Shown: in pieces, positions 6,735 through 20,444 of the stretch
How the letters are laid out: every line of letters begins with the position of its first letter
Position numbering within the stretch: the first letter of the stretch is position 1
Assembly: GCF_001650905.1 (NCBI RefSeq)
Contig: NZ_LXYG01000020.1
Coordinates: forward strand, 1-64,000
Reading direction: 5' to 3'
DNA length: 64,000 bases
From: Balneola sp. EhC07
GTDB taxonomy: Bacteria; Bacteroidota; Rhodothermia; Balneolales; Balneolaceae
Made by a program: the position numbers and the translations under genes
The notes under the pieces: generated by a model
What the model saw: only the letters and a program-made list of their open reading frames with translations
Database searches by the model: none
What the model was told of the DNA's origin: nothing

Positions 6735-8099
6735 TTAACTTTCTATTTTTGATTGATTGATCACGGTGTTCATTCCTTGAATTACATCTGTAAATTCTGA
6801 AGCAACATACTTCCGGACAATATTTCCATTTTGATCAACTAAAATTCTGGTTGGTACGTCAGTAACATTAAAGGTCTCGATCAGTTTTTGGATATCAAAA
6901 GTACCAAAAGCAGCAACTCCCCAATGCTTTACACGTTCTTCAAAAAATGCATTTACGGTCACTTCACTTCTGTCGAGAGGAATAGTAAATATCTCCAGAT
7001 CATAGTTTTGATAGATCTGGTGGATCACCACAGTACGATCGTATTGATCCTGATAAAGGCGACTTGCAACCGGTGTAATTTCAATTATATAAGGCTTTCC
7101 AATTAACGTTGATGAATTAATGGAATCTCCTTCCTGAGTCGCAAACGAGAAGTCAGGAACTCTGAAACCCGGAGCCAAATAAGCCAGATCATATCCAATG
7201 TTCTTTGCCCATTGCATTGCATTGGTTTTACTGTTGTACTTCTTCTCAAATATTTCAAGAGCCGACTTAGCTTCATCCACCCTTGAGCTATCATATAAAA
7301 CTTCGATCTTCTTTTGATCCAGACCCAAAATAAGATCTTCACGTTCTGTAAGTTCTGAAAGTGAATCCAGATACGATATTCCTTTGTCCAAGCCCTTTTC
7401 TTTAGCTATATATGGAAACCCGAAGCTAACGGCAGCAAAAATAGCATCCTCACTGGTAAGAGCGTCATTGATTCTCTGCATCATCATTGGCTTATCAATT
7501 GTATTAAGCAATCTGGCAGATTCTGAAGCTGCTAAGTTCGCAGCTATTGTTTCAGTATGCTTTTCATGGATTTCCCAATACAGATCACTCCATTTTAAAA
7601 CCTCATCATAAATAAGAGAATCTTCAATTGCGCCTGCAGCAATATATGCGGCTACTCTTTTAAAACCCCGGTCAACCCGATCAAAGGTTTCCATTGCTCG
7701 ATGCTCTCTTGAATCTAATTCAAAATTAACATTTAAGGCCGGTAGCACTCCTGAAAAAGTAAGAGTGTCATTGTCGGCTAGTATAAACTGAGTAGTTGCA
7801 ACCTGATTTCCATTTCTGTTAAAGAAAACCGGATAGATTCCTTTTTGAGGAAACTCCACTTTTCCCTTAACGATTCCATTTGCATTAGTTGCTTTATTGA
7901 AAATTGTATCAACTTTACTTGTAGCACTTTCCTGATAAGTGATTATCAATTGAATGCCCGAATAATCTTTTGAATCATCAACAGAATCTGCAACAGTTAT
8001 TGTTCCATTCAGATAGGCCGTCTCGAATTCCGGATCGTTGCTACAACTAGCAAGAGCATATGCAAGAAAAACTAAATAAAATATATTTCTGATCTTCAT
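6735..8099 (-). CDS. TlpA-like thioredoxin-fold lipoprotein without the CxxC
   Basis: An SPII signal (lipobox LASC) is followed by a DUF4369-like N-terminal region that starts near TAYLNGTITV and runs to about 120. A helical middle follows, then a C-terminal thioredoxin/AhpC fold beginning at APGFRVPDFSF. The cis-Pro segment DVPTRILVD is kept, but where the redox CxxC should follow the first strand (IIEIT) the sequence reads PVASRLY, with no cysteine. It therefore cannot be a classical disulfide reductase. I chose the ATG at 8099 over a GTG at 8114 because the signal peptide then starts MKIRN. The gene abuts tpiA, and gatB ends 21 bases upstream. Binding or scaffold roles are possible. Confidence 0.75.
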   Translation of the reverse strand: MKIRNIFYLVFLAYALASCSNDPEFETAYLNGTITVADSVDDSKDYSGIQLIITYQESATSKVDTIFNKATNANGIVKGKVEFPQKGIYPVFFNRNGNQVATTQFILADNDTLTFSGVLPALNVNFELDSREHRAMETFDRVDRGFKRVAAYIAAGAIEDSLIYDEVLKWSDLYWEIHEKHTETIAANLAASESARLLNTIDKPMMMQRINDALTSEDAIFAAVSFGFPYIAKEKGLDKGISYLDSLSELTEREDLILGLDQKKIEVLYDSSRVDEAKSALEIFEKKYNSKTNAMQWAKNIGYDLAYLAPGFRVPDFSFATQEGDSINSSTLIGKPYIIEITPVASRLYQDQYDRTVVIHQIYQNYDLEIFTIPLDRSEVTVNAFFEERVKHWGVAAFGTFDIQKLIETFNVTDVPTRILVDQNGNIVRKYVASEFTDVIQGMNTVINQSKIES

Positions 8100-8120
8100 A
8101 ATAGTTTGATTCACCTAGAA

Positions 8121-9569: not shown

Positions 9570-9732
9570 TTAGTCCTGTTTCAGAATCGTGATTTATGAA
9601 GGGTAAAGATATTAAAGTAAATACTTAGATAGTAAACTTAATATGCATTACTTGTGCTGTTTTAGTATGTTCTTTTAGAATAGTGGTTTGGTCATCATCT
9701 TCACTACGAATTTAATTTCAAAAAGGATAAGC

Positions 9733-11538
9733 ATGTCTGAAAAAGTGAAAATTTCAACAAAGAAATACTTCGCTGTATTTGCGGTAATATTCCTTGTAGC
9801 TAATAAAGCTTTTGCTTATCAGGAAGAAAACCCTGTAAGTCTCCAATCTTTTGTCATTGTAGACTCGCTTGCAATTTTAGAAAAAGTAATACCTCATGAT
9901 ATCAATCAAGACGGACATACTGACTTAGTTTTCCAGCAAATATTTAACAAAAATTCCCCGGGCGATAAAAAAATTGATATAAAGTATATAAAGGGAACTG
10001 AGAACGGTCTCGATTTTAATAATGCTTTCACTTTACGATCAGCTTCAGATATTTCTAACTTTTTCTTGTCAGATTGGAACAATGATGGTGATACAGATTT
10101 AATATTTACAAAGACCCGAAAAGAAGAAAATGGAAGTACTTATAATGATGTTATGGAGATACAATTGCTTTCAGGAACCAAAACACTTGAAACCATTTCA
10201 TTTCGGGTTCCTTATCAGATCTATCTTGGGAATGCATCAAAAGCAAAGGAGCTCAAAAACTTAAAAGACATGGATCTGGATGGTTTTCCTGACATGGTTT
10301 TAATTGGGTTTAGCCACGTTACAATTGGGTGGAATAATAAGGGAGGCGAACCGGAATTTGATGAAATAACAAACTTTGGTTTTAATACTTATTCCTCAAA
10401 AATACTCGACTATAATCAGGACGGCTATCCTGATTTCATAAATGATGATCAATATTGGAAAGAACCTGTTGTGCATCAGAATAATAGGAACAGAACGTTC
10501 ACAAGAAAATCAATAAATCTTCCAAAATGGTCTTTTTCTGATGAGTCTTCTCTTTACTGGAATTTTGAACCATTATGGCTGAATGAAGATAAATTTCCTG
10601 ATCTTATGGTTCAAAAAACCAATCAAGGTTTAACGAATGCAACTTATATTATTTATGAATTTGAGGAAAGCAGCAACTCATTTGTAGAAGCAGATTATCA
10701 AATTAAGTCTGAAGATCTGGGCTTACTTAAAGCCTTCCATTTCAATAATGATGGATTAACCGACTTTATCGAGATAAGAGAAGGAGGGCTTAGGTTAAGG
10801 GTCAGTAATCAAAATAGCGAATACAATACGTACCAATTAAATTTTGAAACCAGATACGGAATAAAGAATATTTTCAAGTTTGATGGTGATGGTGATGGTG
10901 ATTTGGAAGTATTCTTTTCGTTCAATAATGGAAATCTTCTTTATCAAGCTTCAAATGAATTGCTTTTAAATAATGAGCGACCCAGTTCAGTTTCATTCAA
11001 TTATATTTATGAACAAGAAAATTCTCTCGCTACCTCATGGGCTCCAAGTAGTGATATAGAGTCATCAGAAGGACATATTGAATATTTGATATCAGTAATT
11101 TCTGAAAAAGATTCTATCTCTATTAATACCAACTCTACTTATTTAAATATTCTAAACTTACCTAAAGGCACTTATCAAGTTAATGTAAAAGCCTTAGATC
11201 CATTGGGGTTATACTCAGAAAGTGCAGTTTCTGAACCACTTGTAATCACTTCAAATCTTCAAGAATCTTTACCTTTCAAGTTTAACCTTTATCAAAACTA
11301 TCCGAATCCCTTTAATCCCACTACAACGATTCAGTTTGAATTAGATAAATCTACTTTTACAAAACTTGTGGTATATGATGTACTTGGAAGAAAAGTTCAG
11401 GAATTAGTGAATGAAATTCGTCCGGCAGGTCCCAACACTATTGAGTTCAATGCCACCAATTTAGCCAGTGGAGTATACTTATACAGATTGGAAGCGAATG
11501 GAGTTGTGCAAACTAAAAGACTCACGCTGATCAAATGA
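9733..11538 (+). CDS. Secreted FG-GAP/VCBS-repeat protein with type IX sorting domain
   Basis: I start at the ATG at 9733, which has an AAAGGA ribosome site 5 bases upstream, rather than the TTG at 9688. A signal peptide ends near AFAYQ. Six calcium-loop-like repeats follow, including INQDGHTDL, WNNDGDTDL, MDLDGFPDM, YNQDGYPDF, FNNDGLTDF and GDGDGDLEV, spread over about 50-410; these suit an integrin-alpha-like propeller. A fibronectin-III-like region (about 430-510) precedes the sorting domain, which starts at NYPNPFNP and ends TLIK. The protein should be exported by Sec and then by type IX secretion to the surface or medium. It overlaps the next gene by 4 bases, and only its last 85 residues resemble the three genes downstream. 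Confidence 0.85.
   Translation: MSEKVKISTKKYFAVFAVIFLVANKAFAYQEENPVSLQSFVIVDSLAILEKVIPHDINQDGHTDLVFQQIFNKNSPGDKKIDIKYIKGTENGLDFNNAFTLRSASDISNFFLSDWNNDGDTDLIFTKTRKEENGSTYNDVMEIQLLSGTKTLETISFRVPYQIYLGNASKAKELKNLKDMDLDGFPDMVLIGFSHVTIGWNNKGGEPEFDEITNFGFNTYSSKILDYNQDGYPDFINDDQYWKEPVVHQNNRNRTFTRKSINLPKWSFSDESSLYWNFEPLWLNEDKFPDLMVQKTNQGLTNATYIIYEFEESSNSFVEADYQIKSEDLGLLKAFHFNNDGLTDFIEIREGGLRLRVSNQNSEYNTYQLNFETRYGIKNIFKFDGDGDGDLEVFFSFNNGNLLYQASNELLLNNERPSSVSFNYIYEQENSLATSWAPSSDIESSEGHIEYLISVISEKDSISINTNSTYLNILNLPKGTYQVNVKALDPLGLYSESAVSEPLVITSNLQESLPFKFNLYQNYPNPFNPTTTIQFELDKSTFTKLVVYDVLGRKVQELVNEIRPAGPNTIEFNATNLASGVYLYRLEANGVVQTKRLTLIK
10882..10902 (+). repeat. GATGGT hexanucleotide tandem repeat inside an FG-GAP blade
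   Basis: Three GATGGT units plus GAT encode an Asp-Gly run that overlaps a calcium-loop-like motif. Because the unit is six bases, slippage would change the number of DG pairs without breaking the frame. Confidence 0.6.
11280..11538 (+). repeat. Sorting-domain module, copy in FG-GAP gene
   Basis: This stretch codes for the type A sorting domain starting near NLYQNYPNPFNP. It resembles the three downstream copies from NYPNPF onward but lacks the preceding ENGQPTSIKQ linker. It is the most diverged of the four, with KLVVYDVLGRKVQ where the others have KLTVFDVLGRKVR. Confidence 0.75.
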
Positions 11539-12914
11539 AGAGGCTTTATTTTATAATACTTTTCTGTTTGTTTGGCTCATCAATTTCAGCTCAGGAACGC
11601 TATTTTCATGAATTAAAAGGGTTTGAAGATTCTACCGATACAACTCAACTGTTCTTTCAGATTCATGAAACTCCCGAAGAAGGAGAGCAGTTCAATTACC
11701 GATATGATCATATCTATCACTTTGATGTTGTAACTAACACTTATTACAAGCTCTTCAATAATTATTATGAAGAATGGACTATTCCGGGAATGTACACGGC
11801 AAGTTATACCACCGACTACCATTTTTTTGATAGTGATCCTTCTAAGTGGATAAGGATGACTACAAATGGAGAAGGCTCTGCCCCTTCGTTTCATGATCAT
11901 AGAAATGCCGGCTTTGGGTTTCCTTTTCCAATTATTATTAAAGCTCAGATGAATAATGAATTTTATTACGCTGCTAATAAATTTTTACTGAGTATCGCAA
12001 ATGATTCGCTTTACTATATCACAGACGACTTTACTGTACCATTCTCACCCGATAGTTCAAAGTGGCCTTATTTTGATGACGATGATTCAGGTTATGATGA
12101 GATGATTAGCTACTTCGACAGTACTCATTTCGATTATAGTCTTTTGGATATTCATCCGAATAATGATTCTCTTTATTTCGGAATTGATGGGAATGGACAT
12201 CTATTCAGAAGCGAAAAATATTCTTCTGATTTTGAACTAGCTGACTCTTCTATGTTTTTTTCAGCCTTATTTTTTGATCAAAATCCGAGCTATATATATG
12301 GCAGGAATGCAAATATGCTAAGAATTTCGAATAATGGTGGCATTCAAGGCTCATGGGATAAAATTACATTACCTGAAAACCTAAACAAATTACTTTTTGT
12401 CTCTACAGATACTTCAATCTCTGGTAGTTTGTTCATTTCCGATTCCGCTTCTGTCTACCACTCTTCTGATTATGGGAACAGTTTCGAAATGCTTCTGGAA
12501 TTCGATTCTCAAATTACCGGACTCTACAAAAAGCCAGATTCGGATATTTTATATGTATTGACACGAACGGATCTTTACAAGGTAGAAAACGGTCAACCAA
12601 CTTCCATCAAACAAGTTCCGGTTAGTAATGAAGAATCTCCTGAAATCCCGAATGCGGTTTCTCTAAAACAAAACTATCCGAATCCTTTTAATCCAACCAC
12701 TACAATAGAATACGAACTAGATAAAACTACATTTACCAAACTGACCGTGTTCGATGTACTTGGAAGAAAAGTTCGGGAATTGGTAAATGAAATTCGTCCG
12801 GCAGGAACCAACACCGTTGAATTTAAAGCCACCAATTTAGCTAGCGGCGTATATCTGTACAGATTGGAAGCAAACGGCGTTGTTCAAACTAAAAGACTCA
12901 CGCTGATCAAATGA
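11535..12914 (+). CDS. Secreted propeller protein with type IX sorting domain (tandem copy 1)
   Basis: The 459-residue protein has a signal peptide ending SISAQ, then the family-specific opening HELKGFEDSTDTTQLF. The middle is rich in Asp, Tyr and Phe and ends with a BNR/Asp-box-like SSDYGNSF blade near 312-319. From residue 327 (ITGLY) to the end it shares a 133-residue module with the next two genes. That module contains ENGQPTSIKQVPVS, then the sorting domain from NYPNPFNP to LTLIK. The start ATG overlaps the previous stop (ATGA), as it does with the next gene. The family was not recognised beyond the sorting domain. The likely fate is extracellular, via type IX secretion. Confidence 0.75.
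   Translation: MKRLYFIILFCLFGSSISAQERYFHELKGFEDSTDTTQLFFQIHETPEEGEQFNYRYDHIYHFDVVTNTYYKLFNNYYEEWTIPGMYTASYTTDYHFFDSDPSKWIRMTTNGEGSAPSFHDHRNAGFGFPFPIIIKAQMNNEFYYAANKFLLSIANDSLYYITDDFTVPFSPDSSKWPYFDDDDSGYDEMISYFDSTHFDYSLLDIHPNNDSLYFGIDGNGHLFRSEKYSSDFELADSSMFFSALFFDQNPSYIYGRNANMLRISNNGGIQGSWDKITLPENLNKLLFVSTDTSISGSLFISDSASVYHSSDYGNSFEMLLEFDSQITGLYKKPDSDILYVLTRTDLYKVENGQPTSIKQVPVSNEESPEIPNAVSLKQNYPNPFNPTTTIEYELDKTTFTKLTVFDVLGRKVRELVNEIRPAGTNTVEFKATNLASGVYLYRLEANGVVQTKRLTLIK
12513..12914 (+). repeat. Shared 402-bp 3' module, copy 1
   Basis: This is one of three in-frame modules of identical length (402 bp including the stop) ending the tandem secreted-protein genes. It codes for the last propeller strand, the GQPTSIKQVPVS linker and the sorting domain. 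Confidence 0.85.
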
Positions 12915-14377
12915 AAAGGCTTCTTTTCACCATATCGTTTGTGTTTTTCAGCTTTCCATTGATTGCACAAGAATCAAACCCCAATTTCTTCCATGATCTA
13001 AGTGGTTTTGAGGATTCCACGGGAACAACACAATTATTTTATCGACTGTATGAACCTAAAAATAGAATATGTTCTTATCAGGAAGACGGCCAAACTTATA
13101 CAACTAACATAAACCCATACAAAAATCACATTTATCATTTAAACACCGAACTTAATTCAGATTCAGTTATTCTAAGAGATTACGTTCAACTGTCTGCCTT
13201 TTGTCAGGAAGTACCATATAAAATCGAGTCTTATATTTTCGTCGATAATAAGGTCACTAAACCGGTAGCTATCTATGAATCTATTTATGGTTTGAGTGGC
13301 AATGCTACTTTAGAAACTTATGACGAAAACATTTTCCAAATCGGAATTGCCAACCCGCTTGGTTTAAGTTATCAAAAAAGTACAAACAGTCTGATTGTTA
13401 CATCTCCTATTTACGAAATATTAATAAAGGCTGTTTCTGGATATGACGCTACTCTCAAAAAAACCTACCGATTTCCTCTAAACCAAGACAGTTTATGGAA
13501 TGAAAAAAGTTACTATGATGATTATCCGGATTCACTCTTAATTGACTTCTCTGTTCTTGGAATTGTTGATTATGATGATGAAATCTTTATCGGATTTAAA
13601 GATTCAAGTCTAGTATTGTCTTATGATTCAGGAGATACTTCCGAGGTAATCATTGATAATTTTTTTGAAAAATATTCCATGCTTGATGTTTCATTTGAGC
13701 CACTAATTATACCACCCTCAAAGGTTTTTTACCTTAGGAATAAGGCAAATTATATTGGAAATGGTATTACTTCCGACATCATTAGAGTTAAAAGATTTGT
13801 AATTTTTGATGGTTATGTCTGGGAAGATGATGAGTTATTGGAAAATTCTGAAAACAAAAGAATATCTATAGACTACTCAAACCCTGATCATCTATATTTA
13901 TCTGATACTACAAAAGTTTTCTTCTCTGAAGATTACGGCGAAAACAGGCAGGAAATTCTGGAATTTGAGGCAGAAGTAACCGGTCTCTACAAAAAACCAG
14001 ATTCGGATATTTTGTATGTGCTTACTAAAACTGATCTGTACAAAGTTGAAAACGGTCAACCTACCTCCATCAAACAAGTTCCGGTGAGTAATGAAGATAC
14101 TCCTGAAATCCCGAATGCGGTTTCTCTAAAACAAAATTACCCGAACCCATTTAATCCAACGACAACTATTCAATTTGAATTGGATAAATCCACCTTCGCC
14201 AAGCTAACTGTATTTGATGTGCTTGGCAGGAAAGTACGGGAATTGGTGAATGAAATTCGACCGGCCGGAACCAACACCATTGAATTCAACGCCACCAATT
14301 TAGCCAGTGGGGTTTATCTGTACAGATTGGAAGCAAACGGCGTAGTTCAAACTAAAAGACTCACGCTTATTAAGTAA
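12911..14377 (+). CDS. Secreted propeller protein with type IX sorting domain (tandem copy 2)
   Basis: The 488-residue paralogue has a signal peptide (FPLIAQ), then HDLSGFEDSTGTTQLF, matching its neighbours' opening. The middle is strongly diverged and holds several Asp-Ser-Leu strands such as GFKDSSLVLSYDSGD. An Asp-box-like SEDYGENRQ lies near 345, followed by the shared module from residue 356 (VTGLYKKPDSD) to LTLIK. About ten residues differ from copy 1 in this module, whereas the middle regions align poorly by eye. A 4-base overlap with copy 1 suggests coupled translation. Function is unknown; extracellular localisation is inferred from the sorting domain. Confidence 0.75.
   Translation: MKRLLFTISFVFFSFPLIAQESNPNFFHDLSGFEDSTGTTQLFYRLYEPKNRICSYQEDGQTYTTNINPYKNHIYHLNTELNSDSVILRDYVQLSAFCQEVPYKIESYIFVDNKVTKPVAIYESIYGLSGNATLETYDENIFQIGIANPLGLSYQKSTNSLIVTSPIYEILIKAVSGYDATLKKTYRFPLNQDSLWNEKSYYDDYPDSLLIDFSVLGIVDYDDEIFIGFKDSSLVLSYDSGDTSEVIIDNFFEKYSMLDVSFEPLIIPPSKVFYLRNKANYIGNGITSDIIRVKRFVIFDGYVWEDDELLENSENKRISIDYSNPDHLYLSDTTKVFFSEDYGENRQEILEFEAEVTGLYKKPDSDILYVLTKTDLYKVENGQPTSIKQVPVSNEDTPEIPNAVSLKQNYPNPFNPTTTIQFELDKSTFAKLTVFDVLGRKVRELVNEIRPAGTNTIEFNATNLASGVYLYRLEANGVVQTKRLTLIK
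13976..14377 (+). repeat. Shared 402-bp 3' module, copy 2
   Basis: The same length and frame as copies 1 and 3. The part coding for the VPVSNE..PEIPNAVSLKQ linker is nearly identical in DNA to the other copies, while flanking parts differ at many silent positions. Confidence 0.85.
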
Positions 14378-14379
14378 CT

Positions 14380-15816
14380 ATGAAAACTTTCAAGCTAGTT
14401 ATTTCTTTGATATTTATGCTTCACCTGACAACCTTGGATAGCTATACTCAGGAAGTAACTTATAATAACCTGAAAGGTTTTGAAGATTATTCCTCAAACT
14501 CACAGCTGTATTATGTGAAAAGACATACTACTCCTTGTGATAATGGAATAGAACTAGTTAGAGAATCAAATATTTACCATTTCGATACTTCAAATTCTTC
14601 AGATTCATTACGATTTAGAGGAACAAGCAGACAAAATAATTATGAAAACTGCTATAATATTGGATATAAGGATTTGACAGATTTTCATATTGGAAAAGCT
14701 GATTCAAATTTTGTAATCAATTTTAAATTCGGAACACATAAATATTCAAGTAATGAAATATACGGATCACTAAGGATGTTTGACCCGGGTCTATTAATTA
14801 ACTTTATCAGACATCCATATTTACGCGATAAACTCTTAATAGAATATTTAAGCTATTCAGCAGGGGAAGGAAATAAAACCAATGAGCTTTTTTTCAATTA
14901 TGAAGATGATGAGAATCCAGCTGATACCTTATATTTTTCTTCCAGTTTAGGATATAGATTTTTAGAACCATCCATCCAACGCTCTGATAGTACTATTTTT
15001 ATACTTGAGTCCGATTCCTTGTTTTTAACTAAAGACCTTAACAAAGCTACATCGCTTAGTTTACCAAATGTCATTAATTTTATAGATTCTTCAAATGATT
15101 CATTGAGCATTTACGGTGACTCTCATTTAAATATCTATCATACTAAAAATTCTGACCTCTTTTATTGGTTTGTTGATCTTAAAGATTCCCAAAATGATTC
15201 GGTTCAAACTTACTTACTGAAAAATTCTGCTAAAGGGGAAATTGATAACTGGGAAGTTTCTTCACTCTTTACAGATATTGAAGACGCCTCCTTGAATACC
15301 AGTTATTATGCTGTTTCTTCAGATTCAGTACTTTTTGCATCTGTGGGAACCAAATTATTTCAGTCGGTAAATGCCGGAAACAGTTTTAATTCTTTCATTA
15401 CTTTCGATCATACTATTACCGGTTTATATGCTAAACCTGATTCTGATATCCTTTATGTATTAACCAAAAAAGCACTTTTTAAAATTGAAAACGGACAACC
15501 TACTTCCATCAAACAAGTTCCTGTTAGTAATGAAGAATCTCCTGAAATCCCGAATGCGGTTTCTCTAAAACAAAATTATCCGAATCCCTTTAATCCAACC
15601 ACTACTATTGAATTCGAACTGGACAAATCCACTTTCACCAAATTAACAGTGTTTGATGTGCTAGGCAGAAAAGTCCGGGAATTGGTGAATGAAATTCGTC
15701 CGGCCGGAACCAACACCATTGAATTTAACGCCACCAATTTAGCCAGTGGCGTGTATCTATACCGATTGGAAGCAAATGGAGTTGTGCAAACAAAGCGATT
15801 AACATTGATCAAGTAA
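14380..15816 (+). CDS. Secreted propeller protein with type IX sorting domain (tandem copy 3)
   Basis: The 478-residue paralogue starts 2 bases after copy 2 and has a signal peptide ending near SYTQE. The family opening appears as NNLKGFEDYSSNSQLY. The middle region is again unlike its neighbours. The last Asp-box position is degenerate (SVNAGNSFNSF), followed by the shared 133-residue module from ITGLYAKPDSD to LTLIK. In this copy the pre-sorting segment has diverged a little more (KKALFKIENG). It ends the plus-strand operon; an AT-only hairpin at 15820-15853 separates it from aguA on the other strand. Confidence 0.75.
   Translation: MKTFKLVISLIFMLHLTTLDSYTQEVTYNNLKGFEDYSSNSQLYYVKRHTTPCDNGIELVRESNIYHFDTSNSSDSLRFRGTSRQNNYENCYNIGYKDLTDFHIGKADSNFVINFKFGTHKYSSNEIYGSLRMFDPGLLINFIRHPYLRDKLLIEYLSYSAGEGNKTNELFFNYEDDENPADTLYFSSSLGYRFLEPSIQRSDSTIFILESDSLFLTKDLNKATSLSLPNVINFIDSSNDSLSIYGDSHLNIYHTKNSDLFYWFVDLKDSQNDSVQTYLLKNSAKGEIDNWEVSSLFTDIEDASLNTSYYAVSSDSVLFASVGTKLFQSVNAGNSFNSFITFDHTITGLYAKPDSDILYVLTKKALFKIENGQPTSIKQVPVSNEESPEIPNAVSLKQNYPNPFNPTTTIEFELDKSTFTKLTVFDVLGRKVRELVNEIRPAGTNTIEFNATNLASGVYLYRLEANGVVQTKRLTLIK
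15415..15816 (+). repeat. Shared 402-bp 3' module, copy 3
   Basis: The same length and frame as copies 1 and 2, with a linker stretch almost identical in DNA to copy 1 and a slightly more diverged beginning (AKPDSD, KKALFKIENG). Confidence 0.85.
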
Positions 15817-15819
15817 TTC

Positions 15820-15853
15820 AATATTGAATATTCATTGTTGGATATTCAATATT
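15820..15853. terminator. AT-only 12-bp hairpin between convergent genes
   Basis: AATATTGAATAT pairs perfectly with ATATTCAATATT around a 10-base loop and overlaps the aguA stop codon. With no G/C clamp it is a weak terminator at best. It shares the TATTCAATATTCA core with the repeat family at 59.3-59.6 kb, so it may be a relic of that element. Confidence 0.45.
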
Positions 15854-19723: not shown

Positions 19724-19754
19724 ATACGTATTTTATGATAAAATTCATACGTAT
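19724..19754 (+). promoter_or_regulatory. Two-site palindromic operator candidate for the toxin-antitoxin pair
   Basis: Two copies of the self-complementary octamer ATACGTAT are centred 23 bases apart, about two helical turns. The second overlaps the antitoxin start codon. This spacing is typical of operators bound cooperatively by ribbon-helix-helix antitoxins, so autoregulation is likely. No Shine-Dalgarno is seen upstream. Confidence 0.5.
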
Positions 19755-20034
19755 GAAAACGAAACTTACATTAAGCCTCGAAGAAGATGTTATAAAGCAG
19801 GCGAAAGCTTACGCAAAGGATCAGGAAACTTCGATTTCTAGCCTCGTTGAGAACTACCTGAAAGTCATTACTTCTGCTAAAAGAAAAGAAGGAGAGCAAT
19901 TAAAAATTGAAGAAGAATCTGTGAATTACAAATCTGAAAATACTCCTATCGTTCAAAGGTTGAGAGGAATTCTTGATCCAGATAAAGTTACAGGTCACGA
20001 ACGCTATGATTATTTAATGGAAAAACATAAATGA
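19753..20034 (+). CDS. Antitoxin, ribbon-helix-helix-like (DUF6364 type)
   Basis: From the ATG at 19753 the protein is 93 residues; an ATG at 19735 would add six. The N-terminus KTKLTLSLEEDVIKQAKAYA gives the beta-strand and first helix of a ribbon-helix-helix or DUF6364 fold, and SISSLVENYLKVI gives the second helix. A charged, flexible tail follows, which normally wraps the toxin. It overlaps the PIN-toxin gene by 4 bases (ATGA), the classic coupled arrangement. The ATACGTAT pair over its start suggests self-repression. Confidence 0.8.
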   Translation: MKTKLTLSLEEDVIKQAKAYAKDQETSISSLVENYLKVITSAKRKEGEQLKIEEESVNYKSENTPIVQRLRGILDPDKVTGHERYDYLMEKHK

Positions 20035-20444
20035 CTAAGACATTTATAGATTCTGATATTTTCCTGGATGTAATTCTAGATCGAAAACCTTATGCAAAGA
20101 ATTCCTCTAAAATATTTGATCAAGCCATTTATAAAAATATATCTTTGTACACTTCTGCCGTTTGTTTTGCTAACATTTATTACATAGCTAGCAAAAACAT
20201 AGGAAAGGTAAAAGCAAAAAAGCTAATTACTGAATTCAAAACATTATTTGAAGTAATTCCTACTTCTGATCGGGCTATCCATTTAGCAATACAATCTTCT
20301 TTTACTGATATTGAAGATGCAATTCAATATTTCACGGCTCTAGAAAACAGATTAGATTTGATTATAACCAGAAATAAAAAACACTTTAAATTATCTGAAA
20401 TACCCGTACTTAGTCCGACTCAGTATTTAGCAACTTTGATCTAA
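20031..20444 (+). CDS. PIN-domain RNase toxin (PIN_3 type)
   Basis: The 137-residue protein has the acidic residues of a PIN nuclease: D7 in [10 protein letters not shown], the E95/D96 pair in [12 protein letters not shown] and TRN at 113-115 following LIITRN. PIN toxins of VapC-like systems cleave tRNA or rRNA with Mg2+. It is paired with the upstream antitoxin, overlapping by 4 bases, and ends overlapping prfA tail-to-tail by 4 bases, so there is no space for a terminator. The RNA target cannot be told from sequence. Confidence 0.85.

What the first reader, a model, noticed from the sequence alone, without database searches (positions are those of the whole stretch)
11280..15816. Mosaic conservation of the sorting modules in tandem genes
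Three paralogous genes end in modules of exactly 402 bp. Protein identity is about 92% by eye, yet silent sites differ widely except in one near-identical stretch coding the VPVSNE..PEIPNAVSLKQ linker. The middles are strongly diverged. This fits gene conversion of the linker plus strong selection on the secretion signal.
Basis: partly seen in the sequence, partly recalled or inferred. Interest (0 to 1): 0.6.

Follow-up and report, generated by a model that had tools for sequence, protein, structure and literature searches.

The report
Secretion-tail DNA swapped between neighbouring genes
In a Balneola-like marine bacterium, neighbouring genes for different secreted proteins keep trading the DNA of their shared export tag by ordinary recombination, so the tags stay alike while the proteins they carry differ, and genes are gained, lost and fused at this spot from species to species.

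Summary
The last 402 nt of genes B, C and D (11535-15816) align without indels at 92.5% protein identity per pair. Silent divergence is high (pS about 0.5) except for a dip over the linker (pS 0.06-0.12; scan permutation p=3.5e-4). A fourth gene, A (about 9733-11538), with an unrelated FG-GAP body, carries the same sorting domain.

Across 11 modules from five related species, the PHI test is significant (p=5e-4, also on silent sites). Bodies of orthologous genes keep 80-94% silent-codon identity, whereas their tails drop to 52-72% (significant in 7 of 8 pairs). Body types are older than the genus, yet the tails group by genus or genome (AU tests p=1.8e-3 or less). The last 25 codons follow array position (exact p=1/792). 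One species has a B/C fusion, and copy number runs from 0 to 4.

The linker is one of several moving tracts; in G003 the pattern is reversed. A second, sharp-edged tail family lies on other contigs.

Most likely this is an array of type IX secretion cargo genes evolving by homologous recombination through its shared tail: a new variant of a known kind.

The parts
9570..9688 (+). conserved 5' flank between gatB and the first gene of the array (probable promoter region)
   Evidence: nearly identical in G001, G002, G004, G007 upstream of their first gene, and upstream of A here
9733..11538 (+). gene A: FG-GAP repeat protein (601 aa from the ATG at 9733; mechanical ORF starts TTG 9688) with a T9SS type A sorting domain
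   Evidence: PF13517 and PF18962/TIGR04183; body 41% identical to the first array gene of G012
11296..11538 (+). sorting domain of A, homogenised with B-D
   Evidence: 80-84% protein identity over the matched stretch to B-D; others in the genome 57% or less to the array query
11535..12914 (+). gene B, secreted protein (distant beta-propeller/BNR-like similarity) with sorting domain; ATGA overlap with A
12513..12914 (+). 402-nt 3' module of B (last propeller blade, linker, sorting domain)
12600..12671 (+). linker of B, silent-divergence minimum
   Evidence: pS 0.06; scan p=3.5e-4
12911..14377 (+). gene C, beta-propeller-like secreted protein with sorting domain; ATGA overlap with B
13976..14377 (+). 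402-nt 3' module of C
14063..14134 (+). linker of C
14380..15816 (+). gene D, secreted protein with sorting domain, terminal gene of the array
15415..15816 (+). 402-nt 3' module of D; last 25 codons of the terminal type
15502..15573 (+). linker of D
15817..15845 (+). conserved 29-nt 3' flank between the last array gene and the convergent agmatine deiminase gene
   Evidence: nearly identical in five species

Best explanation
This is a variable tandem array of type IX secretion (T9SS) cargo genes, probably read as one operon, between gatB and the agmatine deiminase gene. Each gene has a signal peptide, its own body, and a shared 3' module encoding the last body strands, a disordered linker and the type A sorting domain (A shares only the sorting domain). 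General homologous recombination (unequal crossing over and gene conversion) acts between array copies and, by transfer, between species. It runs mainly through the 3' modules and sometimes through the short homologous 5' leader. This keeps export tags alike, separates tags from bodies, and adds, deletes or fuses genes while the array's outer ends stay in place. Purifying selection keeps the tag protein constant. The linker identity of B, C and D is one recent tract in this genome. SHOWN: mosaic ancestry, conflict between body and tag trees, position-specific ends, a fusion gene, copy number 0-4. INFERRED: RecA-type recombination as the agent, single transcript, export through the T9SS, and any benefit from swapping bodies.
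For: Machinery: T9SS sortase PorU (1017 bits) and SprA (1489 bits) are in this genome. Recombination inside the module: PHI p=5e-4 over 11 modules, silent-only p=5e-4 to 1e-3. Body against tail in the same orthologous gene: silent-codon identity 0.80-0.94 against 0.52-0.72; Fisher p from 5e-9 to 5e-3 in 7 of 8 pairs, n.s. in the eighth (G000-G001 B, p=0.15); the closest relative switches along the module. Trees: body types B, C and D each reach outside the genus or are ancient, but all module tails of five species form one clade, and the tail pairs of G003, G012 and G032 each group by genome. AU tests reject tails grouped by body type (p=2e-4 to 1.8e-3) and bodies grouped by genus (p=4e-4). 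Position: the last 25 codons split into internal and terminal genes, exact p=1/792; outer flanks are conserved. Fusion: the single gene of G007 has a B-type 5' end joined to a C body. Copy number: 0 in G005 and G006, then 1, 2, 3 and 4. Generality: G003's two genes share 96% nt identity over the tail, dropping to about 13-47% upstream. Genes on C14 and C16 have tails mostly 87-100% identical per 30-nt block with a sharp edge and 29-39% identical bodies. Adjacent sorting domains are more alike genome-wide, p=2e-4, also without A-D.
Against: Only one genome per species was available, so no event was seen between strains. Linker codons remain somewhat more conserved than expected even against G003 and G012 (0.52-0.64 against 0.40-0.42 expected, few independent codons), so mild silent constraint there is not excluded. 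Averaged over the genus, linkers within a genome are no more alike than between genomes (0.79, 0.79, 0.78); only G000 is clearly homogenised. Two other tandem pairs in the genome (C15, C20) have related tails with saturated silent sites, so proximity alone does not force conversion. The GENECONV-like p-values are not corrected for the number of pairs.
Confidence: 0.82

Rival explanations
1. No recombination: old tandem duplicates whose modules are held at protein level by purifying selection, with the linker DNA additionally constrained at silent sites (RNA structure, overlapping gene, codon choice).
For: pN/pS in the tail is very low. Linker silent identity is above expectation genus-wide and slightly so in deeper comparisons.
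Against: Linker paralogs in G003 and G012 are at chance for silent sites (6/16 and 3/7) while their tails are alike. No unusual RNA fold (z 0.04, -0.87, 0.24) and no open overlapping frame running through the module in the copies. It cannot explain the PHI result, body/tail tree conflict, excess tail divergence between orthologs, position-specific ends or the fusion gene.
Confidence: 0.07
2. Array turnover by unequal crossing over and horizontal import of whole genes alone, without true short-tract gene conversion; mosaic modules are old crossover junctions.
For: Position-specific ends, the fusion gene and variable copy number are crossover signatures.
Against: The homogenised linker of G000 is an internal tract with diverged sequence on both sides in all three copies, which needs double exchanges. 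The C14/C16 family shares tails across distant loci.
Confidence: 0.3
3. A dedicated site-specific recombinase shuffles bodies or tails (shufflon or phase-variation cassette).
For: Near-identical short blocks shared by co-oriented genes.
Against: No tyrosine recombinase match nearer than C20:125.8 kb (serine recombinases were not searched). All copies are complete genes on one strand with no silent cassettes; tract edges differ between genomes.
Confidence: 0.03
4. Assembly artefact: collapsed or chimeric repeats created the mosaic.
For: G000 is a draft of 20 contigs and at least one relative (G007) appears to be a metagenome assembly.
Against: Longest exact run shared within G000 is 53 nt, so most read or k-mer lengths resolve the copies. 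The single-contig genome G003 shows the same kind of pattern, and syntenic arrays appear in many independent assemblies.
Confidence: 0.02

Closest known systems
Porphyromonas gingivalis T9SS surface proteins (Kgp, RgpA, HagA): domain rearrangement and allelic exchange (PMC5266723)
   Same: T9SS cargo genes diversified by recombination between and within genes; mosaic not following the strain phylogeny
   Different: There adhesin and catalytic domains in the body are rearranged among gingipain genes; here the C-terminal sorting module is exchanged across a variable tandem array with unrelated bodies
Terminal reassortment of type III secretion effectors (recalled; original paper not held)
   Same: A secretion signal is separated from the body by recombination, yielding new secreted chimeras
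   Different: N-terminal signal and dispersed genes there; C-terminal sorting domain, tandem array and repeated homogenisation here
Concerted evolution of tandem paralogs by gene conversion and unequal crossing over (general)
   Same: Homogenised segments, copy-number change, fusion genes
   Different: Only the tag module is homogenised while bodies stay ancient and divergent
Campylobacter fetus sap S-layer genes (recalled)
   Same: Tandem surface-protein genes sharing one conserved end used for recombination
   Different: That system uses DNA inversion, a single promoter and silent cassettes; none of these were seen here

Membership tests
T9SS type A cargo protein | C-terminal sorting domain matching PF18962/TIGR04183 above the curated cut-off | tested here: met
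   All four proteins, 39.7-52.3 bits against 27 and 41.9-49.4 against 23
T9SS type A cargo protein | N-terminal signal peptide | tested here: inconclusive
   Hydrophobic starts such as MKRLLFTISFVFFSFPLIAQ read by eye; no signal-peptide predictor available
T9SS type A cargo protein | T9SS machinery in the same genome | tested here: met
   PorU-like sortase and SprA over their cut-offs
T9SS type A cargo protein | actual export and cleavage in the linker | not testable with these tools
   needs proteomics
Array under gene conversion / concerted evolution | recombination within the aligned segment | tested here: met
   PHI p=5e-4, silent-only p=5e-4 to 1e-3
Array under gene conversion / concerted evolution | segment history differs from flanking gene history | tested here: met
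   AU tests p=1.8e-3 or less; body against tail Fisher tests
Array under gene conversion / concerted evolution | paralogs in one genome more alike than orthologs | tested here: inconclusive
   Met for whole tails at genus level, for G003 and G012 pairs and for the G000 linker; not met as an average among the five close species
Site-specific shufflon / phase-variation cassette | adjacent recombinase and fixed crossover sites | tested here: not met
   No tyrosine recombinase within about 100 kb; breakpoints vary

The most novel reading that the evidence does not exclude
The locus is a cross-species exchange station for T9SS cargo. Position-specific outer ends are kept while interchangeable bodies are slotted in by recombination in the shared sorting module and 5' leader, and sorting modules elsewhere in these genomes serve as general handles for moving new bodies onto a working export tag.
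Probability: 0.35. Interest if true: 0.62.

Novelty: new variant of a known kind. Interest (0 to 1): 0.45.

Why it matters
Genomes of this group carry dozens of proteins with the same export tag (about 58 found here). If the tag's DNA is a shared recombination handle, it explains how very different proteins acquire and keep a working export tag, and how secreted repertoires change quickly without mobile elements. It also warns that trees or dates from whole T9SS cargo genes mix two histories, and that testing paralogs of one genome alone can miss conversion that has made a stretch uniform in every copy.

Tried and rejected
GENECONV-like permutation on B, C and D alone: flags only a B-C 3' end run (p=0.006), not the linker, because the linker is nearly monomorphic in all three. 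Codon usage as the cause of the dip: rejected. RNA structure in the linker: z 0.04, -0.87, 0.24. Overlapping genes: no open frame through the whole linker in another frame shared by the copies. Site-specific (tyrosine) recombinase: none near. Donor sorting domains elsewhere in the genome for the array: none above 57% identity, and the linker DNA occurs only three times. Structure model of C: mean pLDDT 72, pTM 0.49, so the fold search (PorZ first, E=1.2e-7, TM under 0.3) supports only 'beta-propeller-like'. Literature: one paper held T9SS, C-terminal domain and gene conversion together; none joined T9SS, sorting domain, recombination and paralog.

Full report
WHAT IS THERE. The window lies in a 3.62-Mb genome in 20 contigs. 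Between gatB and a convergent agmatine deiminase gene lie four co-oriented genes, A (about 9733-11538), B (11535-12914), C (12911-14377) and D (14380-15816). A/B and B/C overlap by ATGA, and C and D are 2 nt apart, which suggests one transcript. All four end in a T9SS type A sorting domain. The genome has the PorU-type sortase and SprA. A has FG-GAP repeats; C is modelled as a beta-propeller-like body, a disordered linker (391-402, pLDDT under 50) and a beta-strand C-terminal domain (overall confidence modest). The 402-nt module therefore covers about the last blade of the body, the linker and the sorting domain.

B, C and D have no indels over the last 402 nt and 92.5% protein identity per pair. 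pS is 0.50-0.53 overall, 0.06-0.12 over the linker and 0.55-0.58 in the tail. Codon bias predicts about 9 identical codons of 22-24; 19-23 are seen. The scan statistic gives p=3.5e-4. A weaker dip lies at codons 85-108.

THE TAILS ARE THE REAL ANOMALY. Syntenic loci were taken from relatives. Between the close species, neighbouring genes mostly have pS about 0.2-0.5 (the TlpA-like gene is an exception). Bodies of orthologous B and C genes keep 80-94% silent-codon identity, but the tails of the very same genes keep only 52-72%; the difference is significant in 7 of 8 pairs (Fisher p 5e-9 to 5e-3). The closest relative of each module changes along its length, for example G004_B with G000_C at 98% over the linker and G002_B with G007 at 100% over 60 nt further on. 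PHI over 11 modules gives p=5e-4, with similar values on silent sites only.

TREES CONFLICT. The body tree has deep types: the B clade and the C clade each include genes from other genera. The sorting-domain tree joins all tails of G000, G001, G002, G004, G007 and (as a starred sub-pair) G003, including A, and joins the two tails of G003, of G012 and of G032. AU tests reject tails grouped by body type (p=5.4e-4 for C, 2.4e-4 for B, 1.8e-3 for A with G012_X) and reject bodies grouped by genus (p=3.6e-4). A is matched in body by G012's first array gene (41%), yet its tail is that of its neighbours.

POSITION AND COPY NUMBER. The last 25 codons fall into an internal type and a terminal type according to place in the array, not body type (exact p=1/792; other segments show no such split). 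The 5' flank after gatB and the 29-nt 3' flank are conserved between species. Copy number is 0 (G005, G006), 1 (G007, G017, G028, G030), 2 (G002, G003, G004, G012, G020, G032), 3 (G001) and 4 (here). The single gene of G007 is a B-type 5' end joined to a C body, with the switch inside the shared stretch coding GFEDSTGTTQLFYRLYE. These are signs of unequal crossing over.

THE LINKER IS ONE MOVING TRACT. In G003 two genes with different bodies share 68 of 72 codons in the tail but only 8 of 19 in the linker, the reverse of the window. In G012 the linkers are also at chance and the tails alike. No RNA fold or overlapping frame explains the linker. Mild silent constraint there remains possible.

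GENERALITY. Over 56 sorting domains of this genome, same-strand neighbours within 5 kb average 0.72 identity against 0.47 for other pairs; permutation p=2e-4 for all, and 2e-4 without A-D (0.60). Duplication contributes to this. A second family, two genes on C14 and one on C16, has bodies 29-39% identical but tails mostly 87-100% identical in DNA, falling to about 25% at one sharp edge. On C2 two neighbours without detectable body similarity share 83% of the tail protein. Controls: tandem pairs on C15 and C20 with 42-51% bodies have saturated silent sites in the tail (codon identity 0.42 and 0.39), so strong selection alone does not produce the array's pattern.

MECHANISM. General homologous recombination is the simplest agent: no tyrosine recombinase match within about 100 kb, no silent cassettes, variable breakpoints. 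Whether exchange between species is direct transfer or old shared variation is not settled. In P. gingivalis the CTD's cleavage is described as sequence-independent (PMC4804311), so keeping this linker sequence by protein selection alone is not required there; transfer of that finding to Balneola is inference.

VERDICT. This is a T9SS cargo array in which the tag module recombines among genes and species: a new variant of known recombination-driven diversification of secreted proteins.

Noticed in passing
G000 C14:122681-125479, C14:126751-128259, C16:53031-55262 (L176, L177): Second family of sharply bounded, homogenised sorting domains on two contigs, with bodies 29-39% identical and tails 93-95% identical.
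   Followed up: partly
G000 C2, L178:3696-6155 and L178:6184-8232: Neighbouring genes without detectable body similarity share 83% of the sorting-domain protein.
   Followed up: partly
window 6735-8114: TlpA/thioredoxin-like lipoprotein gene next to gatB has pS about 0.7 between most close species but 0.19 between G000 and G007, while its neighbours show about 0.2-0.35: looks like allelic replacement of this single gene.
   Followed up: no
window 19735-20444: Antitoxin-like and PIN-domain-like (VapC-type) gene pair between pckA and prfA; a similar PIN-like gene is present in G001, G002, G004 and G017 but not listed at this site in G007 or G003.
   Followed up: no
window 11535-12914 compared with L058/L059: Gene B exists as two deeply different alleles at the same place: G000/G001 against G002/G004, bodies about 30% identical.
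   Followed up: partly
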